A DNA stretch of 64,000 bases from Saccharopolyspora spinosa NRRL 18395 (lineage in GTDB: Bacteria > Actinomycetota > Actinomycetes > Mycobacteriales > Pseudonocardiaceae): NCBI RefSeq assembly GCF_000194155.1, contig NZ_GL877879.1:1004658-1068657 (forward strand), read 5' to 3'. Made by a program: the position numbers and the translations under genes. Shown here piece after piece: positions 15,652 to 64,000 of this stretch. The notes under the pieces are model-generated. The model did not search any database. It was not told where the DNA came from and worked only from the letters and a program-made list of their open reading frames with translations. Position 1 is the first letter of the stretch; each line of letters begins with the position of its first letter.

Positions 15652-15744
15652 CCGCAGACACCGCCACGGGCACCCTTGTAGGCCCACCTTGACCATAACC
15701 CAGCGTCAGCGCACCAAGAACCTGACCAGGCAGTCGGCGGGCAC

Positions 15745-16402: not shown

Positions 16403-16539
16403 GTCCGCACTCCCAAGCCTCGGCTTCCCATACCCTCATAACGAAGCATGCCCAACCCGGGTTCATACCTTCTTCACGAAGTCTTCAGACCCCCGCTCAC
16501 CCAGCAAACACCAACGTCCCGGAGCGAGGTGCCGGAGTG

Positions 16540-17371: not shown

Positions 17372-17399
17372 AACCGCAGATCAGCCCCACCAGCCGAGT

Positions 17400-18071: not shown

Positions 18072-18099
18072 CAAATCCTTCTGGTCGGCTCGGACGCCG

Positions 18100-18330
18100 G
18101 ACCGCCGCTACGCGCAGATCTTGCGTCTCAAGGCCGACAACCGCGCACTCAGCGAGCGACTCGCCGAGGCCACCGGCAGGATCGACGAACTCACCGACTC
18201 CCGCGCACAAGCCATCGCGCGCCTGGCCGCCCAGCACGAGGAAATCACCCGCCTACGTCAGGCGGCTGAAGTCGCCAGAACGTCGATCACACGCCTGCCG
18301 CGGCGCAACGCGGTCATCGGTCCCTGCTGA
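18100..18330 (+). pseudogene. Coiled-coil protein tail, DUF6262/Tn554-TnpC-like
   Basis: Reads ILRLKADNRALSERLAEATG, then RIDELTDSRAQAIARLAAQH, a heptad-rich helix like the C-terminal coiled coils of DUF6262 (TnpC-type) proteins that accompany tyrosine recombinases. No start is present. A broken recombinase lies 600 bp downstream, consistent with an old mobile module. Confidence 0.4.
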
Positions 18331-18399
18331 AGAGGCGCCGAGGACCAAAACACAAGTACGACAGGCAGATCCATCCCCACGAACAGAATCGAGCCGACA

Positions 18400-18921: not shown

Positions 18922-18925
18922 TCGA

Positions 18926-19225
18926 GTGATCTATGCCGCGTCATCGAGGCGGAAACCAAACACAGGCATTTCTTTGCGTCGCATATCCGTGCGGCGCAAA
19001 TCGAGGCAGCTCAATCGCCACACTCACCCATCTGAACACGGCGACTGCGGACACAAGTCGTCCTACGTCACGCACCTCATCGAGGACGGCTTTGACACTC
19101 GATTGGTTCAAGAACAAGCAGGTCACGACCATGCCAGCACCACGGCGATCTACACGTGCGTGTCCTCGGACTTCCGCACCCGCACCGTGCGGAGAGCCTT
19201 GGACGCCCAGTCGAAGCCGCGATGA
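18926..19225 (+). pseudogene. Tyrosine recombinase C-terminal fragment
   Basis: SYVTHLIEDGFDTRLVQEQA then GHDHASTTAIYTCVSSDF carries the GH of box II and the catalytic Tyr (AIYTCV) of a tyrosine recombinase. The preceding residues, where H-x-x-R should be, read GDCGHKSSYV, so the box is damaged and the catalytic N-terminal part is absent. Confidence 0.65.
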
Positions 19226-19289
19226 AACCCGCTGCCAGGAGGGCGAAAGGAAACGACAGGTCAGCTACAAGTGGCGACTGCGAGAGGTC

Positions 19290-19577
19290 ATGGCCGCACA
19301 TGGGATGTTCGCCGCCACTGACCTCGAACCGCAGTTCGTCGATCGAGGGATCAAGCTGTCATCGGTGCAGGTCTGGCGCTTGGTCACCCAGACCCCCGAG
19401 CGGCTCTCGCTGCGAGTGCTCTCGGCTCTCTGCGACATCTTCGAGTGCACCCCGGCCGAGCTCATCGCGACCAGAGCCGAGAACGCCGCACCCCGCAAGA
19501 CCAGCACCGCCGACGCTGAGGTCGTCGACCTGGCCACCTCCGTTCGCCCCAAGCGCGCCCGCATCCGGCCGGAATGA
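19290..19577 (+). CDS. Small XRE-type HTH regulator
   Basis: The frame begins upstream as SYKWRLREVMAAHGMF, but the expected start codon before Ser is GTC, so the first usable start is the ATG at 19290 (95 residues). It has a helix-turn-helix (LSSVQVWRLVTQTPERLSLR then VLSALCDIFECTPAELI) like small Cro/C1 regulators that follow tyrosine recombinases in actinomycetes. Its stop overlaps the next gene as ATGA at 19574. Loss of the original start suggests reduced or no expression. Confidence 0.6.
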   Translation: MAAHGMFAATDLEPQFVDRGIKLSSVQVWRLVTQTPERLSLRVLSALCDIFECTPAELIATRAENAAPRKTSTADAEVVDLATSVRPKRARIRPE

Positions 19578-20100
19578 CCGAACGCCCGTATGCCACCGCA
19601 GAGCGGTATGAGCGGTGGTTCATCCGTGATTGCGTTCGTTGCGGTCGTCGAGCGGAGAAGGCGGCGAACTGGGAAGGGCAGCTCTGCCGCACCGGCTACG
19701 ACAGGGCACTGAAGATCCGGGGGGCCTGCCCTAGCTGCGCGGCCGAGCGGCTGCTTCCTTGCCGTAACGAGGCTGGTGAGGCGATCTGCCGGGACTGCGC
19801 TGGCATCACACGCGATTTCTTCTGCAACCGCTGTGGATTCGAAGATCACCTGCACACCGGTCACCTCTGCACCCACTGCACCCTGTCCGATCAGCTCCAC
19901 CAGGCCCTCGCCGACGGCACCGGACGTTCCCGCGCCGTTGGCCCCACTGGTTACCGAGCTGGTGGCCATGCCGAACCCGAAGAACGGCCTGTTCTGGCTC
20001 CGCAGCCCCCAAATCCGCGCACTGCTCGGCGATCTGGCCACCGGAGCCCTTCCGCTAGCCCACGAAGCGCTGCACGAGTTACCGAACTGGCGGCACGAAC
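19574..20100 (+). pseudogene. Zinc-knuckle protein of a recombinase module, frameshifted
   Basis: The start ATG overlaps the XRE gene stop. Cys pairs are abundant: RDCVRCGRRAEKAANWEGQL, CPSC, ICRDCAGITRDFFCNRCGFE and CTHC, suggesting two zinc-binding sites. Near 19928 the frame shifts by one base; the corrected sequence continues APLVTELVAMPNPKNGLFWL and LPLAHEALHELPNW before running into the MFS fragment. Function is unknown; the gene order recombinase, XRE, Cys-rich protein is recurrent in actinomycetes. Confidence 0.6.
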
Positions 20101-20103
20101 GCG

Positions 20104-20400
20104 ATGACGGTCAGATCAGCGCACGGGGGCCGGCTCGCCCTGGTAGGGACAGGACTGGCCCTCTGCTACACAGTCCAGCAGTCGGCCATGCCCGTGCTCC
20201 TCCCGCTGGCCGTCCGGCTCGGTCTGGACGAGATCCGGATGGGCGTGGTCATCACGGCGTCCGGCTGCGCCTTCCTGCTCTCCAATCCTTTGTGGACGTT
20301 CCTATCGCATCGGAGGGGGACCAGACCGCTACTGCTGGGCGGGTTGATCGGTGTCCTGCTGAGCGCGCTTGCCTTCGCCGCTGTCCGCCGCTCTGATGTT
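20104..20400 (+). pseudogene. MFS transporter N-terminal fragment
   Basis: From the ATG at 20104 about 95 residues encode three hydrophobic helices with an MFS-type loop (NPLWTFLSHRRGTRPLLLGG) between helices 2 and 3. The frame ends where sequence next to the minus-strand transposase begins, so the gene was cut after its third helix. Confidence 0.6.
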
Positions 20401-49635: not shown

Positions 49636-49860
49636 AAGGGTAAGAGCGTGCATGGTGAGGTCGCGACAGCCTGGATCCTGGAGGGCACGGCGGGCGGGGT
49701 GCCTCTGGAGGCCGCCGTCCAGGCTGAGATGGAGCGGTTGTTCGCGGCCGATTTCTCCGGGATCCGGGTGTGCCATGACGCCGAGGCGGATCTTGCGGCC
49801 CGCCGCGCCGGGGCGGCTCGACCACCGTCGACGTCGTGTTCGTCTCCACCGCAGCCTGAG
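49636..49860 (+). pseudogene. DUF4157 domain fragment
   Basis: VPLEAAVQAEMERLFAADFS then GIRVCHDAEADLAARRAGA is the core of DUF4157, a domain found on effectors and accessory proteins of extracellular contractile injection systems and on polymorphic toxins. The metallopeptidase-like HExxH part that often follows is missing and the frame degenerates after 49810. Confidence 0.55.
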
Positions 49861-49889
49861 CAGATCCAGATATCCCAATGGGAGGAATC

Positions 49890-50321
49890 ATGAGGGAACG
49901 TAAGGTGTTCGCAGTCGCGGCGATGTTGTTCGGTCTCGCCGCCGCGACCGCGCCGGCGGCGGCCAGTGAGCAGTCCGGCGCGCAGGCGACCGACACCGGA
50001 ACGCGTGTGGTCCGGGTCATCACGGGGCAGGGCAAGGACAAATGTCCGGCGGACAAGCTGTGCCTCTACGAGCTCGCTGCGTTCAACATGGCGAAACCCG
50101 GGCGAATCCTCGTTACCGACGAGGACATCAACGATCTAAGCAAGTACAACTTCGACAAGCAGACCACATCCCTGTTCAACAACCGGGATCGCCAAGTGCG
50201 GGTTTGCAATTCGTTCTACTGCGACGGTGACACTATGGACATACCCAAGGACTACAGCGTCGACTGGGCGGGTACGCCGTTCGACAAGTGGATCTCGGCG
50301 CTGCGGTTCTTCCCCAAGTAA
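49890..50321 (+). CDS. Secreted peptidase-inhibitor I36 / crystallin-like protein
   Basis: 143 residues from an ATG at 49890 with GGAGG four bases upstream (an ATG at 49878 is in frame). Signal peptide FAVAAMLFGLAAATAPAAA, cleavage near residue 28. The mature part has a Cys pair CPADKLCLYE, a NNRDRQVRVCNSFYC block and ends SALRFFPK, as in the beta/gamma-crystallin-like I36 (SMPI) family. It may inhibit proteases or simply be a stable secreted fold. It is convergent with the large operon, the two separated by a shared terminator. Confidence 0.7.
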   Translation: MRERKVFAVAAMLFGLAAATAPAAASEQSGAQATDTGTRVVRVITGQGKDKCPADKLCLYELAAFNMAKPGRILVTDEDINDLSKYNFDKQTTSLFNNRDRQVRVCNSFYCDGDTMDIPKDYSVDWAGTPFDKWISALRFFPK

Positions 50322-50380: not shown

Positions 50381-53086
50381 TTATGAGCTGCGCACGAGGG
50401 TGCCGACGCCGATCGGCTGCCACTGCAGCTCCGTGGCGAACGCTTGGATGTCCGGAACGGGCTGGGTGTCCTTGAGCGACCAGCTGATCTTGACTTTGGA
50501 ACCCGCCGGAACCGCGACGGCGATGGGCGGTCCGGGCTCGAACAACTCGTCGTGGCCTCCCACGGCCCGGACGCGGGTCGTGTGGCTGCTCCCCTCGGCC
50601 GGGGTGACCTCCACGGTGAGGTCGGCGGTGGCGGTGGCGCTGAAGGTCTGGACCGAGCCGAACAGCAGCCCATCGGTCTCGGCCGTGTAGGTGTCAGTCC
50701 GCTCCGTGACGATCGGCTCTGGTGCCAGGGGAACCCGGACGTGAGGTTCGAGGAGCAGTTCGGTGTCACCGAGAACGGTCAGGTTCTGCACCGCGAGGTG
50801 GGGTTGGGACACGGTGACGAAGGTGCGCATCGACGCCGTGACCTGTCCGTTCTTCGTCTTCTCGGTGACGGTCAGGTCGAACGCGGAATCCCGTTGGATC
50901 GAAACCATTTTCGCGTGGTCGGTGCTGACGTCGATGTCCGCGCTACCTGTCCAGCGCAGGGTCAGGGTCTGCCCGGGTTGCCGTTTCTCGCACGTCCAGG
51001 AGACCGTGACGTCCTGGTAGGGCGTCGTGGCCATCCGGTCGGGTTTGAAGTTCCCGAACACGAAACCGCCCGAGAACTTGGCCACCGGGAGGCTGTCGGA
51101 CACAGTCACCCCGTCGATCGTCCCCTTGACGTCCACGATGGCGCTGCCCGCTTGGCCGTTGACGCTGATGGTGTGCAGCGTCACCTGGATGGACTTGTGG
51201 CCCGGGATCTGACCCTGCTTGAGAGGATCGGGTTTGACCGTGAACACAGGCGGTTTTGGTGATGCCAGACGTTTCCACTTGAGCGGCAGGCGAACGCCGA
51301 CGAACTCCGCCGCGTTGGTGGGCACCAGATCGGTCTCGCCGTCGCCCGCGGGCAGTGTGATCGTCAGATCCGAGCACGTGATCGTGGAACTCGTGCGGTT
51401 TTCGATCGTGATGGTCAGCTGCTGCTTGGACTCGCCCGGAACCAGTTGCACCGGTTCGGGCTTGGTGATCCGGTAGGACGCCTTGGGTGTCGACAAGGAG
51501 TGCTCCGTTCCCGTCACGACCACCGGGGTGCGGCGGCCACCGCGTTGCTGCGCCCTCCCGGGTCGAGCGGGATGACGCCGGCGACGAACTTGCCCGCCAC
51601 GTCCACGACCCAGATCGAAGGCGTCTCCGACGGGTCCAGGACGCAGGCGTAGCGGCTGTTCGGTCAGCGGGATGGTGGTCGGGCTGTCGGTGGCCGTGTC
51701 GATGACGATCAGGCTCGGGTCGGTGCTCTGCGTCGCGAGCGCGGCAGCACCGTCGGGAGTCACCACGATGTCGAGAAGCCCGCCGCCCTGCGCTACGTCA
51801 TCGCCCTTCGGGGTTTCCCCGAGGGTGATGCGCCGGACCTTCCGCTTGGGCTTGTCCTCGTAAACGGCGTAGAGCTTGTTCCCGTCCGGGGTGATCGCCA
51901 GGTCCAGGGGACGGCGGGTTCCCTTGTCGATCGGGTCCCCCGGGGTCAGGGTCTGCGTGTCCACTGGGCTGATCGCGAAGTCGTTGCCGGTGGGCGTGCT
52001 GCTGACGTAGACCTTCGAGGAATCCGGGGAAACGGTGATCGCCTGCCCCAGGGCGTTGGTGAACGGCTTGGATTCCGGCTTGGGCTGGCCGTTCTTGATG
52101 CGCACCCCGGTGATCGACCGGGCGTTCTGGTTGTCCACGGTGACCGCCCAGACGCTGTCCCACTCCACGGCGGAGGCCGGGCGAACGAAGGTGCCCAGCG
52201 CCTGGCTCCACACGACCGGCGGCTTGTCCGCGGTGAGGTCGAGCGCGGACAGCGCTTTCGTACCGGGATCGGGTACGTAGGCGCGCCGGTTGTCGGAAGT
52301 GGCGTAGAACCGGAAGTTCGGCGGTTCCGGGGAGGACAGGTCGTTCTCCAGCGGGACGCACTTGGCGGTGATCTTGCCAGGGTTTCCCGACTCGTAAGTG
52401 GTGATGTCGAGGTCCGTGCGCACCCGGATGAGCTGGGCGTTGTGGTAGTACAGGTCGAGCGTCGGGGTGCCCAGCGGCGCGGCCGGCCAGATGTCGGTGA
52501 TCTTCGTCTTCGAGTCCGCATCAACCGTGACGGTGGCCTTCTTGTCGTCGACCGTCGCGGTGTAGCACGAGTCGCCGCTGAACAGGTAGACGGTGCCGTC
52601 GGCCACCATCGCCGCGTCCACGCTGTTGAGCACGCCGAGATCGCGCGCCTCCCCCGCCACGTTGTTCTTGGCGGAGCAATACTTCTTGCCCTTGAACAGG
52701 TACACCCGCTGCGAGGTGTTGAACGCGGCGTCGACGCCCTTGTTGAAACCTTCCGGGAGGCTGCCGATGGTTCCGCTCAGCGTCTTGTCGGTGTAGACAT
52801 TCAGCTTCTGCGGGTCGTACTGGACCAGGTCGTCGCCGTGGGTGAACCACATCAGCCCCTTGGAATCGCGCCACGCGGCGTCGAAACCGGTGCGTCCGAC
52901 CGTGCGGACCAGCTTCGGCCACCACCGGGCCACGTGCCGTGCGGTGCTGAAGGGACCGACCATCTCCCAGCCGGTGTCGTACTTGCTGTAGCAGGTCACC
53001 CAGGTTCCCTTGGCCAGGTACACCGTCGGGATGTCGTAGACGTTGAAGGCGATCGCTGCGCTGAGCCGTGGTGCGGTCATGGTCAT
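50381..53086 (-). CDS. Hemopexin/beta-propeller protein, last gene of the DUF6603 operon
   Basis: 901 residues from an ATG at 53086 after CAGGGG. Residues 1-200 carry hemopexin-like units (DAAWRDSKGLMWFTHGDDLV, DAAFNTSQRVYLFKGKKYCS, DAAMVADGTVYLFSGDSCYT). Residues 230-470 are YncE/NHL-like propeller blades (ITVSPDSSKVYVSSTPTGND, LAITPDGNKLYAVYEDKPKR, VVTPDGAAALATQSTDPSLI). The C-terminal 380 residues are Ig-like sandwiches ending in a TYTAETDGLLFGS module shared with the next protein. Between 51665 and 51528 the frame is wrong: the shifted frame restores YACVLDPSETPSIWVVDVAG, so two compensating indels are present. No signal peptide. Role unknown; the domains suggest adhesion or scaffolding. 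Confidence 0.75.
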   Translation of the reverse strand: MTMTAPRLSAAIAFNVYDIPTVYLAKGTWVTCYSKYDTGWEMVGPFSTARHVARWWPKLVRTVGRTGFDAAWRDSKGLMWFTHGDDLVQYDPQKLNVYTDKTLSGTIGSLPEGFNKGVDAAFNTSQRVYLFKGKKYCSAKNNVAGEARDLGVLNSVDAAMVADGTVYLFSGDSCYTATVDDKKATVTVDADSKTKITDIWPAAPLGTPTLDLYYHNAQLIRVRTDLDITTYESGNPGKITAKCVPLENDLSSPEPPNFRFYATSDNRRAYVPDPGTKALSALDLTADKPPVVWSQALGTFVRPASAVEWDSVWAVTVDNQNARSITGVRIKNGQPKPESKPFTNALGQAITVSPDSSKVYVSSTPTGNDFAISPVDTQTLTPGDPIDKGTRRPLDLAITPDGNKLYAVYEDKPKRKVRRITLGETPKGDDVAQGGGLLDIVVTPDGAAALATQSTDPSLIVIDTATDSPTTIPLTEQPLRLRPGPVGDAFDLGRGRGGQVRRRRHPARPGRAQQRGGRRTPVVVTGTEHSLSTPKASYRITKPEPVQLVPGESKQQLTITIENRTSSTITCSDLTITLPAGDGETDLVPTNAAEFVGVRLPLKWKRLASPKPPVFTVKPDPLKQGQIPGHKSIQVTLHTISVNGQAGSAIVDVKGTIDGVTVSDSLPVAKFSGGFVFGNFKPDRMATTPYQDVTVSWTCEKRQPGQTLTLRWTGSADIDVSTDHAKMVSIQRDSAFDLTVTEKTKNGQVTASMRTFVTVSQPHLAVQNLTVLGDTELLLEPHVRVPLAPEPIVTERTDTYTAETDGLLFGSVQTFSATATADLTVEVTPAEGSSHTTRVRAVGGHDELFEPGPPIAVAVPAGSKVKISWSLKDTQPVPDIQAFATELQWQPIGVGTLVRSS

Positions 53087-53108
53087 CCCCTGATCCTGAG
53101 TCGGGTAG

Positions 53109-54215
53109 TTAGGACAGACCACCGGTTCCCAAGGGGTACCAGGTGGCCTGGTAGTGGAACGGTTTCCCGTTGGCGTTGGCGTTGATGTCGAGCGTGTAGC
53201 CGTTCGGCACTGGGAAAAGCAGGTTCCCCGGGGCGTCTTTGGTACCGATCACGCTGTAGCACTGGCCGACTTCGCGGTCGTCGTCGTAGACGATCGCGGT
53301 GATCGTCGCGGTGCCGTCCTTCAGCGGGTGCGCGTTGGCGGCCAGCAGCCCGTCGGTGGCGGCGGTGTAGCTTTTGCCCCAAGCCTTTTGGTACTCGAAG
53401 GGCTGATCGCAGAGTGCCTGTGGGTTGGTGAGCAGCTTGATCTGTCCCGTGGCGGACAGCCGACCGACTTCGAGGTCCGGCTTGTTGACGGTCACGGCGA
53501 TGGTCGCGGTCGGCGGATCGTTGCTGCCGGTGTCGGCGACCAGCCCGTACGAAGTGGCGGTCGTCAGCGGCCCGGTGTCCCAGGAGCCCTTGCCGTCGGC
53601 GTCCATGTACTTGGTGACGTCCTCCCCTGCGTTGGCACCCACGTAGAGCCAGTAGGTGGGGTAGGGTTTTACGTCCTTCTTGGGACCTTTCCAGTGCAGC
53701 GTGGTCGATTTCCCGTTGTCCACGGTGAGTTTGTCCGGCCTGAAGTACTCGATCAGCGGCGTGTTGCCGGTGCGCAACCGGTACCGGAACGGCCCGAAGT
53801 CTTCGGGACGGCCGGCGTGTTCTCCGTGCAACCGGACCCCAATCGACGCCGTTCCCGGCTCGGTGTCCACGCCGACCCCGTCCAGGGCCAGCTCCAGCGG
53901 CGCACCGGGGACGATCTCGGTGGGCTGCGGAGGAGACAGGGCGAACACGTCGTCTCCGGTGTGCTCCACCCGCCAGCCGTCGGCCGAGGTGTGCAGCCTC
54001 AAGCGCGCCGGATCCGCGACCAGGTGCTGCGGCCCGGTCCCCACCGGGAGGTGGAGTTCCACGCGATGGCAGACCAGCACATCGGTGTCCGGTGTGGACA
54101 GAACCAGCCGCAGCGGGTCGGCGTCGGGCCCGGTACGGAGGTGGTCCGGGGTCGTCGTTTCCAGCGCAGCGACCAGCATCGGCGGGACCGCGCCGTCACG
54201 GTCGGCGGCGGTCAC
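53109..54215 (-). CDS. Unassigned beta-sandwich protein of the DUF6603 operon
   Basis: 368 residues from a GTG at 54215 that overlaps the upstream stop (GTGA). About residues 30-130 hold a beta-rich domain (LRLVLSTPDTDVLVCHRVEL), residues 150-240 an Ig-like domain (SKxTLHWKG pattern: GKSTTLHWKGPKKDVKPYPT), and the C-terminus SYTAATDGLLAANAHPLKDG, then GNLLFPVPNGYTLDINANAN, parallels the end of the next protein. No signal peptide or membrane helix. Function unknown; probably a structural partner. Confidence 0.7.
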   Translation of the reverse strand: MTAADRDGAVPPMLVAALETTTPDHLRTGPDADPLRLVLSTPDTDVLVCHRVELHLPVGTGPQHLVADPARLRLHTSADGWRVEHTGDDVFALSPPQPTEIVPGAPLELALDGVGVDTEPGTASIGVRLHGEHAGRPEDFGPFRYRLRTGNTPLIEYFRPDKLTVDNGKSTTLHWKGPKKDVKPYPTYWLYVGANAGEDVTKYMDADGKGSWDTGPLTTATSYGLVADTGSNDPPTATIAVTVNKPDLEVGRLSATGQIKLLTNPQALCDQPFEYQKAWGKSYTAATDGLLAANAHPLKDGTATITAIVYDDDREVGQCYSVIGTKDAPGNLLFPVPNGYTLDINANANGKPFHYQATWYPLGTGGLS

Positions 54216-57109
54216 GGCTGGCGCCCTTCCCGGTTGATGGGAGTCGGCCCGGCGTCTCCCACGGGGTTCGGTGTGAAGCGCAGGTATCCGGTTCGGGCGA
54301 CCGGTGGCTCGTCGGGGGGCCGGACGGCGGTCTCGGTGCCTGCGAAGGTGTAGTCGGCCCAGGGGTACAGCGCGTCGGGCTCGGTGCGTTCGCTCCAGGC
54401 CCAGGTGCCCCGGGTCCCGGTGGGCACCGGCAGTGCGATGCCCTCGGGCAGGTCGGGGCCGGGGCTGCGCAGGCCCGCAGGCAGCGGGCCGGTGCGCAGG
54501 AAGACCGACATCCGGGCCAGCGGATCGGACAGGAACGCCTCGGGCACCTGCGCGGTGGTCACCGGCAGCACCCCGGTGTAGGCGTGCACCGGAGCCCACG
54601 GGGCGACCAGCGCGGTGATCCACGCTGCGCCCGGTTCGCCCGTTGCGGGACGGGAATGCTCGACCTCAGCAGGCGGTTCGGTGGCGACCACGACCGGGTC
54701 AGACAGGCCGTCGGTGGGCTGGAGGTAATCGGATTCCGAGAGCGCGTGGGAATGCGGGATGAAGAGGGTGTTGTAGTCGGTGTCGTGCGCCTTTTCGGGC
54801 GCGCGCGGGCGGCAGAAGCCAATCAGGCCATCGGTGCGCCGCCACGGGTCTCCCAGGCGCACCTGCCACCGGATCGTCCGCAGCGGGTTGCCGTCGTCGG
54901 TGTCCGGCCCGGCCAGGATGCGCTTCCACTCGGCGGCATAGATCGGCGGCCCGGACAGCTCGATCCGGAGCCGGGCTCGCACCACGGCCAGCGGCAGGCC
55001 GGTGAACACCGACCGGTAGGCCGGCGAGTGGTTCGCAGGCGGCGCGATCGTCTGCAGCGCGGTGTCGATCGTGGCGATCAGGTCGTTGAGCGCTGCCGCC
55101 GCGTCGGTCCGGGTGAGCACACCGGACAGCAGCGGCCCGAGGTGCGGATGCGCCTCGGCGAACTCCGGGGAGAGGAGCTGATCAATGGTGAGCACGGTTG
55201 ACCCCGGCAGCGGCAGCCACGCCACGCGGGGACCGTCGGGGTCGTCGGTGACCAGCAGTTCGCCGATCCCGGTGCCGTCGGCCGCGAGCACGAACAGCGA
55301 CCGGCCGCCCCGGTCCGGCACCAGCCAGCCGCAGATCGGGTCGGGCGCGCCGGCGTAACGCGGCGAGTCCCACGGGCGCAGCGCGACGTCGTCGTCGCGG
55401 GAGTGGACCAGTTCGAGCAGGGTGCGGGCAGGTTGGGCCAGCCGCGGGCGGAACTGGACGAACCGGTCGCGGTTCTCGCTTTCGACGGTCAGCGGCACAC
55501 CCTTCGAGTCGAGGTCGGGTTTCACGTCGCGGGACCGGCGTGGCCGGAACGCGTCCGGGTTCCCGCGCACGAGGTCGACGCCCCGGCCGAAGCGGTCCAC
55601 CACAACGAGCTTCTCGAAGTACAGCTGCCCGGCCCTGATCGGCTGGTACTGCCCCTTGCCCGGCAGAGCCACGGTCGGCTGCGGGGTGAGCAGCGCGGCA
55701 CTGGTGCCGTCGAACGGGTCGAAGTGATTGGCCTGGTCCCGCTCGGCGAACCACGGGTCGAGGCCGGCCAGGCCCTGGGCGACCTGGTCGCGGTTTTCCC
55801 TCTCGGCGAGCATCTTGCGCAGCTTCGCCGCCACCTCGCCGTAGGGGTCGGCCAGCGTGTTGATGTACTGGTCGACCCGACCGGCCAGCGCGAAGGGAGG
55901 CGCTCCGGTCAGCAGAGACCGCCCCTCGACGAACTTCGCTCCCGGTGCCTCGCCCCCGGTCCAGCAGTGGCGGCGGCCGTCGAAGGTCCAGTACTTCGTA
56001 CCGCCGGAGTCGTAGTGCAGGGGGTAACAGTGGGCCTGCCACCACAGGTACATCGGCGCCCAGTACTGCCGCCACAGCCGGGTGAACCAGCCCGTGGTCG
56101 TCTTCCCGGACTCGGCGTCGCCCGGCGTGAACCCGAGACGTTCCAGGGCCGCGTCGAAGGACTTGTCCGGTTCGACCGAGGGGGTGTCGTTGATCCGGGC
56201 GGCGGCTTCGGCCAGCGTCCAGAACTCCGCCACGGCCGCCTCCAGCGGCGCCCAGGACAGGGCTTTCTTCAGCGCTTCGTACCCGTTGGGGGTCGGCACG
56301 GGAATCGGTGGCGTGATGGGGTTTGCGCCGGTCATCTTCGCGATGAGCCGGGTAGCGGCGCGGACCGGCACCGGCGCGGTGCTCGGCAGGTCGACGCGCA
56401 TCCCGTCGCCGCGCAGCAGGGTCAAGGGGTCGGTGCCGCGGCGGTATGGCGGGAGCGGAGTCCGGCGCAGCGTCCGGGCGGGCGGCAGTTTCACCTTGGC
56501 CTCGTAGGCAGCAATGCTGCGGGCGAGTTCGTCGGGGGTGGCACCCTGGGGCACCGCGTCGCGCAGCCCGGTGGTCGTCTCGTCACCGACGCAACGGAAG
56601 ACGAGATCGCCCACCTGCCCGGCGAGTGAGCCTGCGAAGTCCGGATCGAGCTGCTCCTTCACACGGGCGCGGAAATCGGCCGGTGCCTTCCTGTCCTCGA
56701 GCTCGTCGTCGGACAGCCCGGCCAGCCACCACAGCGCATGCAGGCGTTCCCGGGCGATCGCCAGGTCGCGCAACGCGTCGTCGTAGGCCCGCTGGTCCTT
56801 GTTGAGCTGTTCGACGATCTGCTGTTCGGAGGCGATCTCCTCCGGGATCCCGGAGTTGGGCGAGACCCCGGAGTCGGGCCGGTCCACGGCTGACCACGCG
56901 TACCCGGCGGCGCTGTCGGCGAACCAGGTGGCGTGGGCCTCGGCGTCGAGGATGTCCTGACCACCGTCGAGCCAGGCGTCGTCGAGGCGGTCCAGCACGC
57001 CGTACTCGAACGCCTCGCTCCACCGGCGGGCCTCGGGGTCGGTGCGGTTGTCGAGCGCGGTGCGGGCATCGACGACGCCGTTGCCGACCGCCGCGTCCGG
57101 GACGTTCAT
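54212..57109 (-). CDS. Unassigned 965-residue protein of the DUF6603 operon
   Basis: ATG at 57109, overlapping (if its frameshift is corrected) the stop of the gene before it. The N-terminal 250 residues are helical (EEIASEQQIVEQLNKDQRAY, DALRDLAIARERLHALWWLA); the middle has WAPMYLWWQAHCYPLHYDSG and TKYWTFDGRRHCW; the C-terminal third reads WITALVAPWAPVHAYTGVLP. No signal peptide, no catalytic motif that I recognise. Trp/Tyr-rich, Pro-rich composition resembles large structural proteins. Its size and central place in the operon suggest a scaffold or tip component. Confidence 0.7.
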   Translation of the reverse strand: MNVPDAAVGNGVVDARTALDNRTDPEARRWSEAFEYGVLDRLDDAWLDGGQDILDAEAHATWFADSAAGYAWSAVDRPDSGVSPNSGIPEEIASEQQIVEQLNKDQRAYDDALRDLAIARERLHALWWLAGLSDDELEDRKAPADFRARVKEQLDPDFAGSLAGQVGDLVFRCVGDETTTGLRDAVPQGATPDELARSIAAYEAKVKLPPARTLRRTPLPPYRRGTDPLTLLRGDGMRVDLPSTAPVPVRAATRLIAKMTGANPITPPIPVPTPNGYEALKKALSWAPLEAAVAEFWTLAEAAARINDTPSVEPDKSFDAALERLGFTPGDAESGKTTTGWFTRLWRQYWAPMYLWWQAHCYPLHYDSGGTKYWTFDGRRHCWTGGEAPGAKFVEGRSLLTGAPPFALAGRVDQYINTLADPYGEVAAKLRKMLAERENRDQVAQGLAGLDPWFAERDQANHFDPFDGTSAALLTPQPTVALPGKGQYQPIRAGQLYFEKLVVVDRFGRGVDLVRGNPDAFRPRRSRDVKPDLDSKGVPLTVESENRDRFVQFRPRLAQPARTLLELVHSRDDDVALRPWDSPRYAGAPDPICGWLVPDRGGRSLFVLAADGTGIGELLVTDDPDGPRVAWLPLPGSTVLTIDQLLSPEFAEAHPHLGPLLSGVLTRTDAAAALNDLIATIDTALQTIAPPANHSPAYRSVFTGLPLAVVRARLRIELSGPPIYAAEWKRILAGPDTDDGNPLRTIRWQVRLGDPWRRTDGLIGFCRPRAPEKAHDTDYNTLFIPHSHALSESDYLQPTDGLSDPVVVATEPPAEVEHSRPATGEPGAAWITALVAPWAPVHAYTGVLPVTTAQVPEAFLSDPLARMSVFLRTGPLPAGLRSPGPDLPEGIALPVPTGTRGTWAWSERTEPDALYPWADYTFAGTETAVRPPDEPPVARTGYLRFTPNPVGDAGPTPINREGRQP

Positions 57110-57995
57110 CTTCTCTTCACGTCGGGGATGTCCGACGGGAAATGCCCCTCTGGTTCCCAGCCGATGTCCAGCGCGGTACCGACGTAGAGGCAGCGCCGGG
57201 TGATCGGAAGAGTTCGGCGTCCGTCCAGCCCAGGGCGGCCAAACCTGCCGCGAAGCGCTGGGAATCGGTCATCTTCTCCGGTGACTCACCGCGGAAGGCG
57301 AGCAGGGCGCGGAGGTTGGCGTCGGTGAGCGGCTCGTCGATATCGCGGGAGTGCCAGCCGACCACCAGGTAGCTCAACCGGTAGGACTCCTTCGTGCTGT
57401 CCCCGGCGAAGTGGTCCTGCAGGGAGAAGACGTCCTGGTTGTACGGCTGGTAGGAGGCGAACGTGGGCAACCCGGCGCCGACCACCGACAGGAACGGCTG
57501 GTCGCCCGGATCCCGCCACTTGTCCAGCTCCACGCTGCGGCCGATACGCGTGACCCGGGGCTTGCCCCCGTTCCGGACCAGGTAGGGGTTCGTGCCCTCC
57601 TCGTCACTGAGGTAATCGCTGTGCACGACCCAGCCCGCTGTGCCCAGTTTCGTCCCGTCTCCGGTGTACTGGTGGCGCAGGACCAGCCATCGGTTCGGCA
57701 CCAGCGGAAAGGTGACCGCTCCGGGCTTGGGCTGTCCGGGCCCGCTCGCCGCGGACAGGTCGACCCGAGCACGGGCGAGTGCGGCCGGAATCTCCCAGTG
57801 CAGGTGGGTCCCGACGAACCAGTCGTCATCTCCACCGACCTCGGTGGTGTTGCCCGGCGGGCTCTCAGGGCTGTGCCGTGGCTCCCGGTCCTTGAAGTCG
57901 ACCATCCAGCGCCAGAACTTCTCCTTCGTGCGCACGTCCTTGTTGACCGCCAGAGCAGTGACGTTGAGCGGGACGATGAGGCAGGACGGGGTCAT
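57106..57995 (-). CDS. Unassigned ~295-residue protein of the DUF6603 operon (frameshifted end)
   Basis: ATG at 57995 overlaps the upstream stop. N-terminus CLIVPLNVTALAVNKDV, then VGTHLHWEIPAALARARVDL and TFPLVPNRWLVLRHQYTGDG: a beta-rich protein with a recurrent LHW-P..LP-V-PNRW pattern that I have no name for. The raw frame ends at 57117 in arbitrary sequence; moving one base near 57200 restores RRCLYVGTALDIGWEPEGHF then PSDIPDVKRR with a stop at 57106 overlapping the next ATG (ATGA), which I take as the true end. Either a sequencing indel or a recent mutation. Confidence 0.65.
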
Positions 57996-60163
57996 GACAG
58001 GTCCTCACTGCCGTGGGCGTGCGGGGGCGAGAAGACGAGCTCTCCCGGCGTGTCCACCAGTTGGAGTGCGACGGCAGCCGGTGCGAGATCGGCGTCGGAC
58101 TCCCATTGCCCGCGGTCGACCAGGCTCGTTTTCAGCTGCTCCACGAACGACTCGATGTCGAACACCTCCACCGGGAAATCCCCGCTGCGGCGGAGCATTC
58201 CGTCGATCCCGGCGAGCTGGTCGTCGTCGCCCATGCTGCCTCCGATGTCGTCGCCGACCAGGTAGCGCAGCTGGAGGTACCAGTCGCCGTCGAGGCCGAA
58301 GTGCGGCGCCTGCGGCGGCTGGCGCAAGGTCACCGCGTCCGGGACGGCGTTGAAGTAGGCGAGCAGCAGGTCGGGGGCGAGCACGCGGACCTCACGCAGC
58401 ACGGAGCCGGAGCTGTCGCGGGCGTCGACGATCAGGCCGGGCCAGTCGCGCACCAGGGCCGACCGGACCAGCATTCCGGCGACGGGAAGATCGGCGCCGG
58501 TCAGCAGCTGGTCCCGCAGCCTGTGCGTCACGTGGGTATCGAGCTCGGTGTGGCCGCCCACGTCTGCCGCCCCGGCGACGAGCGCGGCGACCCAGTGCGG
58601 GTCGATGTGGAAGAACCGCACGGTTTCCCCGGGCAGCATCCGGTGCTCCGGCACCAGGTGTGTGAAGGGCACACGAGCCAGCAGCTCTACGGGCTTCAGC
58701 TCGTCACAGGCGTCGATCACGGTGTCCACCAGGTGCCCGAGGACCCGGTGACCTCCGGAGTCCGGGGTCGTCACCGCCGTCATCGCGGTCGCGAACCGTT
58801 CCTCCGGTGCGATTCCGGAACCGGATGTCTCTTCGTCGCGGAGGATCATCGCCTCGAACGCTCGGCGGGACCACCGACCTGATGCGACGTCCGCCGCCAT
58901 CCGCTCCGCGTTTTGCCCGGCCCACGCCTCGGCGTCCCGGCCGGCGTGGCCCGAGGCGATGTGAGCGAGCAGATGAGCGGCGTCGGCGCGCAACCCGGCC
59001 AGCGCCGGGCTGACCGCAGGGTGGACCAAACCGAGCACCTTGCCCAGGGCGAATGCGGCGGCGTAGCTGACGTCGAACACCGCGTCCGCGGGCTCGTAGA
59101 TCATCGCCTCGGCTTCCGATGTCGGCGGCGTGCCCTGTTCCGGCGGGCTGCCCGGCGGTACCGGCGTGAACGGCCCGCGGTACCAGGCGTGGGTTCGTTC
59201 TCCGGTCGGGAGATGGTGGCGCAGCGGGACGTAACCGTGTTCGAGCCGCCACCCCACCCTTGCGGTCCCGTCCGTGACGGTCGGCTGGAAAGGCAGGCGC
59301 AGCAACGGAATGGCACCCGAGTTGTGGACCACGCGCTTCGCGACGGTGAGGAAACTGGGCCTGTTGCCAGTGTCTGTGGTGAAGTGCCACGAGTGCAGCG
59401 ACACCAACCGCACGGTCTTGACCGGTCCCTTCCCGTTGGTCCCGGTGTTCGGCAGCGTTGTCAACCATGTGCCGTGGCCTTCCAGACTCACCAGGTGAGC
59501 CGAATACGCCCCGGACCGGGGCAGCCGGTTGGCGATCACGACCGCGACGTCCTCCGGCCCGGGCTCCGGGGCGTGCTCGTCCGCGCGGCGCACGTGCACG
59601 AGGCGGTGGATCTCGGCCAGCCTGGGTACCACGGCGGTGAACGTCGCCGCCGTCAGGTCGATCGTGCGGCACGTGTCGGGGCCGACCAGCACCTGCTCCG
59701 ATGTCAATGCGGGCAGCAGCAAACCGTCGGCGACTGCAGACGGGTCCGCCGGGAAGAACTCGGCGACCGGCCGGTTGGAGATCTCGTCACGCGTCAACGA
59801 GTCCGGTATCAGCTCGTTGTGCCGAAGCAGGATGAGTGCCAACCACGGCGTACCCGACTTCTCCTCCGGCGGATCCGCCGTGCGCTGCCAGGGCAGTGTG
59901 GGCCCCGACAGGCACACGTGCGGCAGGACGCGCGCGAGGTCGCCGCTGGTGCCCGCGACCGGGAAGGCCGTGTGGAGCAGCCGTTGATCCAGGGTGAACC
60001 GGGGAGCCTGGACGTCGACTTCCCGCACATCGGAGTCGAATTTCTGCTGGGTGCCGTCGTTGTCGTTCACCTCGTGACCGACCTCGACGGTGTACCGCCC
60101 GGCGTCCAGCGAGGGCTTCCAGGCGTCGATCAGCACCATCGGCGTGTCGGGTGCGTGAAGCAT
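57992..60163 (-). CDS. Unassigned 723-residue protein of the DUF6603 operon
   Basis: ATG at 60163 begins one base after the DUF6603 stop. The N-terminus is beta-rich (RFTLDQRLLHTAFPVAGTSG, VLPHVCLSGPTLPWQRTADP, then GTPWLALILLRHNELI); residues 360-480 are helical (VFDVSYAAAFALGKVLGLVH, AEAWAGQNAERMAADVAS); the C-terminus has RDWPGLIVDARDSSGSVLRE and DWYLQLRYLVGDDIG. There is no signal peptide or recognised active site. I remember similar LPH-x-L..LPW patterns only in uncharacterised proteins. Confidence 0.7.
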   Translation of the reverse strand: MLHAPDTPMVLIDAWKPSLDAGRYTVEVGHEVNDNDGTQQKFDSDVREVDVQAPRFTLDQRLLHTAFPVAGTSGDLARVLPHVCLSGPTLPWQRTADPPEEKSGTPWLALILLRHNELIPDSLTRDEISNRPVAEFFPADPSAVADGLLLPALTSEQVLVGPDTCRTIDLTAATFTAVVPRLAEIHRLVHVRRADEHAPEPGPEDVAVVIANRLPRSGAYSAHLVSLEGHGTWLTTLPNTGTNGKGPVKTVRLVSLHSWHFTTDTGNRPSFLTVAKRVVHNSGAIPLLRLPFQPTVTDGTARVGWRLEHGYVPLRHHLPTGERTHAWYRGPFTPVPPGSPPEQGTPPTSEAEAMIYEPADAVFDVSYAAAFALGKVLGLVHPAVSPALAGLRADAAHLLAHIASGHAGRDAEAWAGQNAERMAADVASGRWSRRAFEAMILRDEETSGSGIAPEERFATAMTAVTTPDSGGHRVLGHLVDTVIDACDELKPVELLARVPFTHLVPEHRMLPGETVRFFHIDPHWVAALVAGAADVGGHTELDTHVTHRLRDQLLTGADLPVAGMLVRSALVRDWPGLIVDARDSSGSVLREVRVLAPDLLLAYFNAVPDAVTLRQPPQAPHFGLDGDWYLQLRYLVGDDIGGSMGDDDQLAGIDGMLRRSGDFPVEVFDIESFVEQLKTSLVDRGQWESDADLAPAAVALQLVDTPGELVFSPPHAHGSEDLS

Positions 60164-60164
60164 G

Positions 60165-62687
60165 TCAGTGTCCCCCCGCTCCGCTGAGCATCGGTTCGGC
60201 CCGCAGGTGCGCCCGAACCGCGGAGCCGTAGTCCGACAAGAGGTCCTCGGTGCCGTGAGATGCCTGGTGCTCGTCATAGATGCCGTATGTGTGCAGAGCG
60301 TCCAGCAGCGCGCAACGTGCTCCGTGCGAACCGACGAGGTGCGCGGCAATGTCGTCGCGCACGGTGCCCGGACGGGTCGGGGACGGATCAGCCGGATCAT
60401 CGGACCGGATAGGCACCGGCGGCCCGGAAACGGGCTCGTTGCCCAACTTGCTCTCGCTCGTGCGCACCACGGGATCGTCCGGTTTCCGCGTGGGAGCGGA
60501 GACCAGCAGACCGACCACGCCACGCGGCGCGGTCGAACCGGACAGCGGCGGCTCCTTCCTGGCACCCACCGGGTCGCCCCACAGCGCGTCCGGGACGCCA
60601 CCGGCGGCGGCCTGGACATCCCAGCCGTCCTTGCGCAAGTCGAGCACGGCACCCTTGTGCTTGACCCGCAATCGGTGGGTAGACCGCAGCCGACCCTCGA
60701 TCCCCACCGGTCGCACGGACAACAGCTCACCATCCGGTAGATCCGGTGCTGCTTCGGTCGCATCACCGAGGCGGATTTCCTGCACCGGCACAGCACTTTG
60801 GGTGGTGAACCGGAAACCGTCGGTGTCCACGAGCCACGGAGCCGACTCCTTCGGCATCGAGGTGGCCTCCGCGCCCGGCAGCAACCCGGCGGTGGGTGTC
60901 GAGCGCACCACCGGTGCGGGCAGCGAGCGCTGCGCGAACTGCTCCCACTTCAGCAGTTCGGGCGCCGCAGGGCGCGCGTCTCCGAACCGGATGTCGAAGT
61001 CCCACAGCAGAACGTGGATCGTCGCCAGACCGCCGGTGGGCGGCCCCCACACGTCCAGCGAGACCGAGACCGAGCCGTGGAATCCCGGCCAGATGTCGAT
61101 GGCCACCCCGACCGACAGCCGGATCGCCACCTCGTAGTGGAACGGGTCCCACTGGACGAGGGCGTCGAACCCGGCGGACAGCCACGCGCGGATCGGACCG
61201 GCGTGGAAGGTGACGTCTATCGACGCACCGACCATGAACGCCGAGTGCGTCAACGCGCCGTAGCATTCGCCGCGCACCGAGACGGTGTCCGACACCGACC
61301 ACTGCAACGCCAGCCGTTGCGGCTTGGGGTAGTGCACGGGTGGGCTGAACTTCGGGTGGTACCCGCCCAGGCTCACCACGAAGTCGCCGGGATGCGCGCT
61401 CCGGCCGAACCACACGCACAACGCGGCCTGCCCGGTCAGCTCGCAGGACGGGTGCACCACGAACGATCCGGGTGACAGGGCGGCGAACACCTCGACCGTG
61501 TCGGTGGTGGTGTCGTAGGACGCGGAGATGGTCAGTTCGACGTGCGCGTACCGGATCCCGTCCTTGGCCTTGCGCGGGAAGTCCACGCCCGCCCGGCCCA
61601 GCAGCATGATCATGAACCGCTGCGGGCCGCTGGTGGAGAACTCCGCGAGCGCCAGGACGCTGCCGCTGAGGAACTTGAAGGAGTCGAACTCGATGCCGCC
61701 GGCGATCCAGATCCGGTTGTCTGCCTCGGAAATCCACGCCTTGCCGCCACCGGAGCCCTGCAGTTCGCCCAGCAGCGCCAGCGGATCCGACGAGGTGACC
61801 GCACCCGGCATCAGCGGGAAGCTGTCTACCTCGGTCAGCGTCGGCTTCGCGACCGAGCTGTTGTAACCGAACCCGGCGCTCGCACCGGTCACCCGGAAGT
61901 ACACCGGGCCGATGCCCTTGCCCTCGCCGAAAGCCAACCGTCCGAACACGAACACCGAAGGCTCGTGCCCGATCTTCTTGGCGTACCCACCAACCGCGGC
62001 CAGCACCAGCGCCGGAGTGGTGATGCTCGCCCCTCCCTGGATGAGCAGTTCGTACCCCGGAGACTCCCGGTAGACCAGCGCACCGGTGACCTCGACCGGC
62101 TTCCGGCTCCACGACAGGCCGAGCCCTCCGATCGTCGGCCGCACGCTGGTGGGCTGGCCGGACGGGAAGCCCAGTCCCATGCCCCGTCCGCTGACCGTCA
62201 GCGCCGACACGGTCAGGGACGCGTCAGTCAGAACCCAGACCGTCGCGTCCGCGTACCGCACACCGATGCGGTCCAAGCGCAGCGGCCCAAGCACTTTGTC
62301 CACCGGGTACCAGCGGGTCAGTTCGTCGTCGGACGTTGCCGTGGACGTGGCGATAATCTCCTTGCGCTGCAACGGAGGTGCTTGCAGCACCCGGTCTTCC
62401 TTGCCAATCCGGGCGACGACACCGAATCGGGCCTTCGCCGTGTCCTCCTGCTCGGAAAGCTTGAGCAAGGCATCCGGCAGGTTGAGCTCTCCCAGCAACG
62501 CGTTGACCTGCGCGGCCTTCTTGGGCTTCACGACATCGCTCGCACCGATGAACATCATCGCCTTCAGCCGCACATCCACGTCACGCGGAATGTGCGTACC
62601 GACGACCGGGAGATCGCTGAGTCCGGCGTCCGCCCGGGCGCGCAGCAACACCACCCACAGCCGTTTCCCTTGCCCAGGCTCGGTCAT
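60165..62687 (-). CDS. DUF6603-type protein, first gene of the operon
   Basis: 840 residues from an ATG at 62687 with GGAAGG upstream. The central 400 residues have the amphipathic strand pattern of DUF6603: LGPLRLDRIGVRYADATVWV, LTVSALTVSGRGMGLGFP, FGYNSSVAKPTLTEVDSFPL, then GSFVVHPSCELTGQAALCVW and long strands around VTFHAGPIRAWLSAGFDALV that look like a beta-helix or barrel. Residues 600-840 are Pro-rich. No signal peptide. DUF6603 proteins are uncharacterised; this first gene defines the locus with at least six partners. Confidence 0.7.
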   Translation of the reverse strand: MTEPGQGKRLWVVLLRARADAGLSDLPVVGTHIPRDVDVRLKAMMFIGASDVVKPKKAAQVNALLGELNLPDALLKLSEQEDTAKARFGVVARIGKEDRVLQAPPLQRKEIIATSTATSDDELTRWYPVDKVLGPLRLDRIGVRYADATVWVLTDASLTVSALTVSGRGMGLGFPSGQPTSVRPTIGGLGLSWSRKPVEVTGALVYRESPGYELLIQGGASITTPALVLAAVGGYAKKIGHEPSVFVFGRLAFGEGKGIGPVYFRVTGASAGFGYNSSVAKPTLTEVDSFPLMPGAVTSSDPLALLGELQGSGGGKAWISEADNRIWIAGGIEFDSFKFLSGSVLALAEFSTSGPQRFMIMLLGRAGVDFPRKAKDGIRYAHVELTISASYDTTTDTVEVFAALSPGSFVVHPSCELTGQAALCVWFGRSAHPGDFVVSLGGYHPKFSPPVHYPKPQRLALQWSVSDTVSVRGECYGALTHSAFMVGASIDVTFHAGPIRAWLSAGFDALVQWDPFHYEVAIRLSVGVAIDIWPGFHGSVSVSLDVWGPPTGGLATIHVLLWDFDIRFGDARPAAPELLKWEQFAQRSLPAPVVRSTPTAGLLPGAEATSMPKESAPWLVDTDGFRFTTQSAVPVQEIRLGDATEAAPDLPDGELLSVRPVGIEGRLRSTHRLRVKHKGAVLDLRKDGWDVQAAAGGVPDALWGDPVGARKEPPLSGSTAPRGVVGLLVSAPTRKPDDPVVRTSESKLGNEPVSGPPVPIRSDDPADPSPTRPGTVRDDIAAHLVGSHGARCALLDALHTYGIYDEHQASHGTEDLLSDYGSAVRAHLRAEPMLSGAGGH

Positions 62688-62949
62688 GCGCACACCTTCC
62701 GCAGGAGTCGTTCGCCGCTCGCAGAGTCCCATCGCTGCGACTGCGCGGGCGGGGCCAAACGCGACCTTTCGTCCGGTAGAGCAAGGGACCACGCCTTCAA
62801 GTGACCGCCTATCGCGTTGCCGGAGCTATATCCTTTGTGGACTTATGTGCCGCTTGGCGAGAACAACCCGCAGGCCCTAGCCTCCGGAGAAGATGCCGCT
62901 GTCCGCGCTCGACGCCATCGCACTAACGTTCCCAATAGGGAGGTAAAGC
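62688..62949. promoter_or_regulatory. Divergent promoter region of the DUF6603 locus
   Basis: 262 bp between the divergent starts at 62687 and 62950. GGGAGG at 62938-62943 is an ideal ribosome binding site for the plus-strand GTG. Promoters for both sides must lie here; I did not resolve them. Confidence 0.45.
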
Positions 62950-64000
62950 GTGATCAAAAGAAACCTGACAATACCCGCCGACAGGAAGGTTGTTTCCAAT
63001 CCCTTCGGATCCCGAACCCCCGAAACATACGGCAAGGACTTCAAGTCCTGGAAATGGGACGAGAACCCGAAAATTCCGCTTTCCCGGCACCACATAATAT
63101 CGTTCCCAACACTGCGATTGTTCTGGAACGACCTCGTGGCGAACGGGCACAAAAACCATACCCAGGAACTACTGGACAGCATGAAAAACCACCTAGACCG
63201 GTACGGACAATTCGTCGCCGGATTCAACAAAGCCGAACTTGAAAATCTGATCACGAACTGGCACGACTACGAACACGACCCCAACGCCTCAAACCAACTA
63301 CCCGGACTACCGGAACTGGGGAGAATGTTCTGCTGGCTTCCCACCTTGGTCTTCGTAGGCCCGAGCAACAGATCGGAAGACCCAGCGGGCGACAACAACG
63401 ACGGCCGCGTCGAATTCGAAACACACTGCAATGGCGTCCTTCAGCCTTCAGAAGATCCATTGATGGAGGAAGTCGATCGAAACCAGGCTCTTCTTTACAT
63501 CGACTTCTACCGGAAAGCAGCGAAAGAAACTGAGGACTACTCTCGGGACTACGCCCGGTTCGCCGTGAGAGCGCTGACTCGCCTCAATGAGAAGCGGTTC
63601 GAATTCTGGCCACTCCACACCGACGGGTGGCTGTGCTACAAAACTGCCGGGAAGTACAAGTTCAGGATCGAAAAAACCCGTCCTCCCGAGACCACGACGG
63701 AATCCGAAGCCCTGTCGACGAGTGAGGAGCCCTCGATGGAAATCGACAGGGTCCCGATCAACTTCAGCCTGCTGGACCAGGATTCCGAGACCGGCCAGAA
63801 GTACTACGAAGGGCGGGCCACTGGCATCACCCTCCCCGGCATCCTGGCCTGGTGCCGGGACGCGGGATTCAAGAACGCCTCGGTGCCGGACGCGTTGTCG
63901 TCGGTGAAGATCAGCAGCTTGGTCGTGGGAGTGTGGACCGCGCCCGAATACACGCACTGGACGTTCACGGTGAACACGGAGTTCGAGGTGGGCGGGAATA
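62950..64000 (+). CDS. Unassigned protein divergent from the DUF6603 operon (partial)
   Basis: Open from a GTG at 62950, six bases after GGGAGG, to the window edge without a stop: at least 350 residues. It starts IKRNLTIPADRKVVSNPFGS, is rich in Trp, Asp and Lys, and ends with TGITLPGILAWCRDAGFKNA then SSVKISSLVVGVWTAPEYTH and WTFTVNTEFEVGG. That final stretch resembles the alternating helix then amphipathic-strand start of DUF6603 domains, so a second DUF6603-like domain may begin here. The codon use is slightly lower in GC than in the operon. No signal peptide. Confidence 0.65.
   Translation, partial: MIKRNLTIPADRKVVSNPFGSRTPETYGKDFKSWKWDENPKIPLSRHHIISFPTLRLFWNDLVANGHKNHTQELLDSMKNHLDRYGQFVAGFNKAELENLITNWHDYEHDPNASNQLPGLPELGRMFCWLPTLVFVGPSNRSEDPAGDNNDGRVEFETHCNGVLQPSEDPLMEEVDRNQALLYIDFYRKAAKETEDYSRDYARFAVRALTRLNEKRFEFWPLHTDGWLCYKTAGKYKFRIEKTRPPETTTESEALSTSEEPSMEIDRVPINFSLLDQDSETGQKYYEGRATGITLPGILAWCRDAGFKNASVPDALSSVKISSLVVGVWTAPEYTHWTFTVNTEFEVGGN

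What the first reader, a model, noticed from the sequence alone, without database searches (positions are those of the whole stretch)
50381..64000. Seven-gene locus of large leaderless beta-rich proteins around DUF6603
Six minus-strand genes (840, 723, ~295, 965, 368 and 901 residues), most of them overlapping or nearly abutting, plus a divergent partial gene. None has a signal peptide, membrane helix or catalytic motif I recognise. One is DUF6603-like, one combines hemopexin, propeller and Ig-like parts. Seen: the tight operon, domain patterns, absence of leaders. Inferred: they form one assembly, perhaps a structural or adhesive particle. A DUF4157 fragment, a domain linked to extracellular contractile injection systems, lies 0.7 kb away, but no sheath, tube, baseplate or AAA gene is visible here.
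Basis: partly seen in the sequence, partly recalled or inferred. Interest (0 to 1): 0.8.

Follow-up and report, generated by a model that had tools for sequence, protein, structure and literature searches.

The report
Undescribed operon with exchangeable binding tips
A row of very large proteins with no known function turns out to be one conserved gene set found in many bacteria (and a related set in archaea), perhaps building a surface or released particle whose outer ends are swapped like those of phage tail fibres.

Summary
The tight leaderless operon is real and is a conserved unit. In 57 of 58 loci holding F (DUF6603), E and DC, they stand in this order on one strand, mostly followed by fibre-like B genes, in Actinomycetota, Bacteroidota, Pseudomonadota, Bacillota and others. 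Of 396 sampled actinobacterial genomes, 12 have DUF6603; all 12 have E (4) or a diverged E (8, a second class also on haloarchaeal plasmids) next to it. E and DC have no family match of their own; a confident E model found no fold match; F is predicted as an amphipathic beta-meander. B has a conserved N-terminal stem and exchanged C-termini; members carry F5/8C, hemopexin, kelch, PLAT or S74 domains. Corrections: the window's genes 3 and 4 are one gene, interrupted by frame changes; A is disturbed too; the divergent gene is not part of the unit; the eCIS link is not supported (tube gene in 30 of 48 operon genomes, 132 of 199 in one comparison genus). Exceptions exist (L020, L035, L081). Best reading: a phage-tail-independent surface or released particle with swappable receptor-binding tips, possibly delivering an enzyme. 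Assembly, location and function are inferred.

The parts
60165..62687 (-). F: DUF6603 protein, 840 aa, first gene of the unit; predicted amphipathic antiparallel beta-meander
   Evidence: Pfam PF20248 E 2e-128; AlphaFold2 pLDDT 81, pTM 0.63; strand amphipathicity, 0 of 1000 shuffles
57992..60163 (-). E: 723 aa, no family match of its own and no fold match found; AlphaFold2 pLDDT 85.5, pTM 0.76
57117..57995 (-). D: N-terminal part of the DC gene (model positions 3-231), followed by an out-of-frame tail
57112..57204 (-). junction of D and C: model positions 238-266 lie in a third frame, so the DC gene is interrupted here by two frame changes (sequencing error, decay or real split not decided)
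   Evidence: (weak piece, i-Evalue 0.0027)
54212..57109 (-). C: 965 aa, remainder of the DC gene (model positions 266-1166)
53109..54215 (-). B: 368 aa, fibre-like family, conserved stem and variable C-terminus
50381..53086 (-). A: 901 aa, second member of the B family, with an N-terminal partial hemopexin match and a weak propeller-repeat match; apparent compensated double frame change at about 51.6-51.7 kb

Best explanation
The operon encodes a multi-subunit, phage-tail-independent particle that is displayed on, or released from, the cell. F (amphipathic beta-meander, DUF6603), E and DC form the conserved core; the B family (B and A here) forms the outward parts, each a conserved stem that docks to the core plus an exchangeable end that binds a partner surface or glycan. 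In a minority of relatives an enzyme gene lies directly upstream of F (metallo-beta-lactamase fold, RIP-like, LCAT-like; PhoD-like in class II), a candidate payload, so delivery through or beside the F sheet is plausible. Shown here: conserved unit, correlated distances, exchange of B C-termini, binding-type domains in some B proteins, absence of leaders in E, F and B, amphipathic strands. Inferred: physical assembly, stem docking, location outside the cell, release without Sec (for example by lysis), receptor binding, delivery.
For: Of 66 loci, F in 60 and DC in 63; F or DC missing at contig ends in L042, L045, L067, L072, real exceptions L020, L035, L081. F-E-DC on one strand in 57 of 58, F-E gap median 14 bases. 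Independent sample: E in 4 of 396 genomes, all among the 12 with DUF6603; the other 8 carry a diverged E adjacent. Distance correlation of F, E, DC 0.71-0.77 over 55 loci, permuted maximum 0.29. In 96 locus pairs with E identity of 55% or more, the first B's N-terminal 240 residues average 67% (0 of 96 under 35%), its C-terminal 130 average 29% (81 of 96 under 35%; shuffled 20%); C-terminal 130 of E, DC, F average 69, 65, 63% (7, 8 and 2 pairs under 35%). 27 loci in six groups hold 19 end types. Domains in 67 B-family proteins: F5/8C 4, hemopexin 4, kelch 3, S74 chaperone 2, PLAT 1; in L041 the F5/8C is C-terminal. CBM_2 inside one E; tail collar gene downstream in L062. Upstream enzymes. Amphipathic F strands.
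Against: No experiment; no complex could be modelled with two jobs. Only 16 loci have a same-strand gene within 200 bases upstream of F (L050 discounted), and several of those genes are unassigned, so a payload is not a constant part. Most B ends have no Pfam match, and in A the hemopexin part is N-terminal. F's matches to barrels have rmsd 9-16 A and F has no leader, so a pore is one reading only. DC was not modelled. Loci were collected by E, so co-occurrence is conditional except in the 396-genome sample; locus pairs are not independent. Three end groups (3, 2, 2 loci) show no exchange.
Confidence: 0.45

Rival explanations
1. An adhesive or matrix assembly on the cell or spore surface without any delivery: F/E/DC build an anchor, B proteins bind neighbours, substrates or hosts.
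For: Pfam matches in B proteins are mostly binding or propeller domains; CBM_2 in one E and F5/8C in 2 of 36 DC; most class I loci have no adjacent enzyme.
Against: No leader seen in E, F, B; RIP-like and LCAT-like genes directly upstream of F in single loci are unusual for pure adhesion. Anchor motifs were not searched for.
Confidence: 0.27
2. A lipid- or hydrophobic-cargo particle: F is an apoB-like amphipathic beta-sheet that coats lipid, with E and DC as structural partners and B as address label.
Against: Porins match as well; amphipathic strands also occur in ordinary beta-sandwiches; apart from one LCAT-like gene (L061) no lipid gene was recognised inside the operon runs.
Confidence: 0.1
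3. An accessory module of an extracellular contractile injection system (eCIS), for example spare fibres and effectors.
For: The host genome has eCIS tube and eCIS_core matches on contig C5, and an eCIS_core remnant lies 0.6 kb from the operon; eCIS fibres have a conserved base and variable end (PMC12923769, passages); in Paenibacillus polymyxa VgrG- and DUF4280-type genes lie about 9-15 kb upstream.
Against: Tube gene in 30 of 48 operon genomes against 132 of 199 genomes of one large genus; host eCIS ORFs give no match in 66 loci beyond an SsgA-like gene, and 29 ORFs show no profile similarity to the four families. A very divergent eCIS could escape this test.
Confidence: 0.06
4. A defence or toxin-type conflict system acting inside the producing cell or on kin.
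For: Sporadic distribution, plasmids, CHAT/CATRA genes near one plasmid copy (L017), variable C-termini as in polymorphic toxins.
Against: No PADLOC match; Pfam matches in B proteins are not toxin domains (25 of 27 families shown); no small partner family recurs in three or more loci inside the operon.
Confidence: 0.1

Closest known systems
eCIS (Afp/PVC-type contractile injection systems) and their tail fibres
   Same: Fibres with conserved base and exchangeable end, S74 and collar-type domains (PMC12923769, passages); environmental microbes (PMC8213781, passages)
   Different: No sheath, tube, baseplate or AAA gene recognised in the unit; core proteins unrelated in sequence to the host's eCIS region
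Streptomyces umbrella toxin particles (UmbA/B/C, PMC11062931, passages)
   Same: Non-phage protein particles with diverse lectin-type tips, in Streptomyces
   Different: No ALF-repeat or trypsin-like family among the Pfam matches shown for the four families; different gene set, found also outside Actinomycetota
DUF6603 (Pfam PF20248)
   Same: F is a full-length member
   Different: A family of unknown function; no paper in the held library contains the name or accession
Outer-membrane beta-barrels and apoB-100 (fold resemblance of F only)
   Same: Long antiparallel amphipathic beta-meander
   Different: Rmsd 9-16 A, low TM, no leader; most loci here are from Actinomycetota, which lack that outer membrane (general knowledge)

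Membership tests
Pfam DUF6603 | match over the curated cut-off across the model | tested here: met
   F 429 bits, positions 1-501 of 502, cut-off 27
eCIS | sheath, tube, baseplate, AAA genes in the same cluster | tested here: not met
   ORFs of the host's eCIS region (C5:15000-46000) give no tblastn match under 1e-6 in 66 loci except an SsgA-like gene elsewhere in the window; 29 ORFs against F, E, DC, B profiles: none. Flanking genes were not all scanned with Pfam; in L016 a baseplate-V-type gene is annotated about 9 kb upstream
eCIS | intact DUF4157/eCIS_core protein in the cluster | tested here: not met
   in the window only a 38 of 79 position remnant outside the operon; not tested in the other loci
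eCIS | co-occurrence in genomes | tested here: not met
   PF06841 in 30 of 48 operon genomes (49 handles given, for 48 of 59 loci and the own genome; one not held) against 132 of 199 genomes of one genus; the 48 span several phyla, so the control is only partly matched
Umbrella particles | ALF repeats and UmbA trypsin-like domain | tested here: not met
   not among Pfam matches of window proteins, 33 F, 36 DC, 46 E members, nor among the 25 of 27 families shown for 67 B members; that Pfam holds an ALF model is recalled
Tc (ABC) toxins | TcA/TcB/TcC domains | tested here: not met
   not among the same Pfam matches (same limits); content of Pfam recalled
phage-type tail fibre / receptor-binding protein | conserved attachment part with exchangeable C-terminal end | tested here: met
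   B family, pattern of conservation only; attachment itself not tested
phage-type tail fibre / receptor-binding protein | fibre-typical domains (S74 chaperone, collar) | tested here: inconclusive
   S74 in 2 of 67 B members; collar in the one L062 downstream gene scanned; none in the window
outer-membrane beta-barrel | barrel fold | tested here: inconclusive
outer-membrane beta-barrel | signal peptide | tested here: not met
   0 of 64 F by a hydrophobicity rule
multi-subunit particle | physical complex of F, E, DC, B | not testable with these tools
   needs purification or complex prediction

The most novel reading that the evidence does not exclude
A categorically new, phage-tail-independent delivery particle spread through bacteria and, in a second class, haloarchaea: a DUF6603 amphipathic beta-structure is the membrane-crossing part, E (perhaps a new fold) and DC (or X in class II) the scaffold, B-type fibres carry swappable receptor-binding tips, and a swappable enzyme encoded upstream of F is the payload.
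Probability: 0.25. Interest if true: 0.93.

Novelty: categorically new. Interest (0 to 1): 0.76.

Why it matters
It turns a list of unnamed giant proteins into one defined, testable system: DUF6603 is in 12 of 396 sampled actinobacterial genomes, each time beside E or its diverged form, and the unit recurs in several other phyla and, as a second class, on haloarchaeal plasmids. It gives DUF6603 a constant partner and marks which part is conserved and which is exchanged. If it is a particle with swappable tips, it would stand beside eCIS and umbrella particles as a further architecture by which microbes recognise other cells.
Full report
What is there. The window lies in an 8.58 Mb, 22-contig actinobacterial genome. 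On the minus strand, in reading order, are F (60165-62687, 840 aa), E (57992-60163, 723 aa), D (57117-57995, 292 aa), C (54212-57109, 965 aa), B (53109-54215, 368 aa) and A (50381-53086, 901 aa). Of the seven ORFs given to Pfam, only F (DUF6603, E 2e-128) and A (partial hemopexin, E 8e-6) match over a cut-off; PHROGs and NCBIfam add only weak matches.

D and C are one gene. In relatives the two parts lie in one frame, mostly 1,050-1,340 residues; besides the window it is in pieces in L020 and L063 of the 66 loci. In the window the family profile runs in three successive frames: positions 3-231 at 57992-57201, 238-266 at 57204-57121 (weak piece), 266-1166 at 57112-54257. In a further relative (L099) one in-frame stop lies near the same boundary. 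Whether the window's frame changes are sequencing errors, decay or a real split is open. A shows a similar, compensated disturbance by eye. The divergent gene (473 aa) has no Pfam match and no plasmid relative.

One conserved unit. An alignment of E found 59 loci in the genome collection and no relative in viral contigs. With the window and six plasmid loci that makes 66; profiles find F in 60 and DC in 63. F or DC is missing at contig ends in L042, L045, L067 and L072; L020 lacks F, and L035 and L081 lack both. After clustering (two duplicate loci left out) the B family is in 48 of 64 loci, often in two or three copies. F, E and DC are in this order on one strand in 57 of 58 loci; the exception, L045, comes from a wrongly clustered neighbour where the contig begins inside E; the F-E gap has a median of 14 bases. 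Pairwise distances of F, E and DC over 55 loci correlate at 0.71-0.77, permuted maximum 0.29; joint inheritance of a linked cluster would give this too. Hosts by record title include Actinomycetota (most), Bacteroidota, Acidobacteriota, Pseudomonadota, Bacillota, Myxococcota and SAR324 (phylum names from my own knowledge).

Independent sample. Of 396 actinobacterial genomes 12 have DUF6603 and 4 have E, all four among the twelve. In the other eight, a diverged E (E2) lies directly downstream of F on the same strand (five first seen by profile comparison). Where the stretch is long enough the second class continues with X and Y: X in 4 and Y in 2 of these eight, both in the six plasmid loci looked at (in L106 and L108 some of these genes are in two pieces). 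On plasmids, 13 of 13 records with E2 also have F, among them four haloarchaea, Rhizobium, Paraburkholderia and Gemmatirosa. E2 and E align at 96.9% probability over 201 columns, F and F at 99.9%; X and Y show no similarity to DC and B.

Stem and end. For the 47 loci with all four genes the first B after DC was compared. In 96 pairs (36 loci) with E identity of at least 55%, the N-terminal 240 residues of B average 67% (none under 35%) and the C-terminal 130 average 29% (81 under 35%; shuffled 20%), while the C-terminal 130 residues of E, DC and F average 69, 65 and 63% (7, 8 and 2 pairs under 35%). Eight loci with E at 82% hold seven end types; nine hold six; three hold three; but three groups (3, 2 and 2 loci) keep one type each. 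Pairs are not independent. Pfam on 67 B-family proteins (27 families, 25 shown) gives F5/8 type C in 4, hemopexin in 4, kelch in 3, S74 chaperone in 2, PLAT in 1, bactofilin in 1. In L041 the F5/8C domain is C-terminal; in A the hemopexin match is N-terminal; other positions were not looked at, and most members have no match. F5/8C occurs in 2 of 36 DC; one E of 46 has CBM_2 (L050, residues 429-522) and one matches GTP_EFTU_D3, not followed up. Downstream of B in L062 the one gene scanned has a phage tail collar domain, E 3e-11. From this I read B as the outward part.

Upstream genes. Sixteen loci have a same-strand gene within 200 bases upstream of F (not counting L050, where the reference was a wrongly clustered gene). 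Six are a metallo-beta-lactamase-type cluster; of three scanned, L018 matches Lactamase_B over the cut-off, L055 just below, L058 not at all. L061 is LCAT-like and L073 RIP-like, both over the cut-off. L046 and L060 have sub-cut-off hemopexin matches, L019, L024 and L053 none, L034 only a sub-cut-off SPOR match. In class II, L105 has a PhoD-like gene. A sub-cut-off M91 match in L050 lies 0.8 kb upstream of F. This suggests, but does not show, a variable payload.

eCIS. The host has tube matches at C5:19375 and 21504 and eCIS_core at C5, C4 and the 38 of 79 position remnant near the operon. The tube family is in 30 of 48 operon genomes (49 handles given, covering 48 of the 59 loci and the own genome; one not held) against 132 of 199 genomes of one large genus; the groups are only partly matched. 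ORFs of the host eCIS region match nothing in 66 loci except an SsgA-like gene, and 29 of them align with none of the four families. In Paenibacillus polymyxa VgrG- and DUF4280-type genes lie about 9-15 kb upstream of the operon, a lead not followed.

Literature. In the held open library no paper contains DUF6603 or PF20248. Six further word searches listed no title that points to this operon; I saw listings only. Subscription papers and preprints were not searched. Passages read: eCIS fibre catalogue PMC12923769, eCIS survey PMC8213781, umbrella particles PMC11062931.

Verdict. A real, widespread gene system, not found described in what I could search, with a three-protein core and exchangeable B ends. 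I think a surface or released particle most likely (0.45), with pure adhesion (0.27), lipid-type particle (0.1), conflict system (0.1) and eCIS accessory (0.06) as rivals. Assembly, location and function remain to be shown.

Noticed in passing
window 49702-49815 (+): Remnant of an eCIS_core (DUF4157) gene, 38 of 79 model positions in a 95-residue open frame, next to an I36 peptidase-inhibitor gene (49878-50321).
   Followed up: partly
L002:17608-19029, divergent gene starting at window 62950: 473-residue protein without Pfam match or plasmid relative; an N-terminal 'RHHIIS' stretch looked nuclease-like by eye only.
   Followed up: partly
L099:6250-9777: A relative's DC gene has an in-frame stop near the same D/C boundary as the window's frame changes: coincidence, assembly error or a tolerated split.
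   Followed up: partly
L054, L057, L062, L064, L065, L077, L078, L080, L082: E is encoded as two adjacent ORFs (Bacteroidota, Hydrogenophaga, a betaproteobacterial MAG); in L054, L057, L064, L077, L078 and L080 F is over 3200 residues with about 2070-2180 residues before the conserved core.
   Followed up: no
L016/L022 (Paenibacillus polymyxa p-YT9A 11220-20378): VgrG-like and DUF4280 genes with pentapeptide, ankyrin and GH-E nuclease genes on a Gram-positive plasmid, no sheath or tube among the annotations seen, upstream of the DUF6603 operon.
   Followed up: no
L105-L110 (class II loci): Giant families X ('LLPVRLETRF') and Y ('RQWQLGEFxGEDAGTPV') without Pfam match in the members scanned, shared by haloarchaea, Rhizobium, Streptomyces and Nocardia plasmids; in L105 the record calls them BGTF surface domain and lamin tail domain proteins.
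   Followed up: partly
alignment A3 (E family): One E member matches GTP_EFTU_D3 at E 8e-29; the locus was not identified.
   Followed up: no
L062:17878-21428: Six tandem similar-looking genes downstream of B in Mucilaginibacter; the one scanned has a phage tail collar domain.
   Followed up: partly
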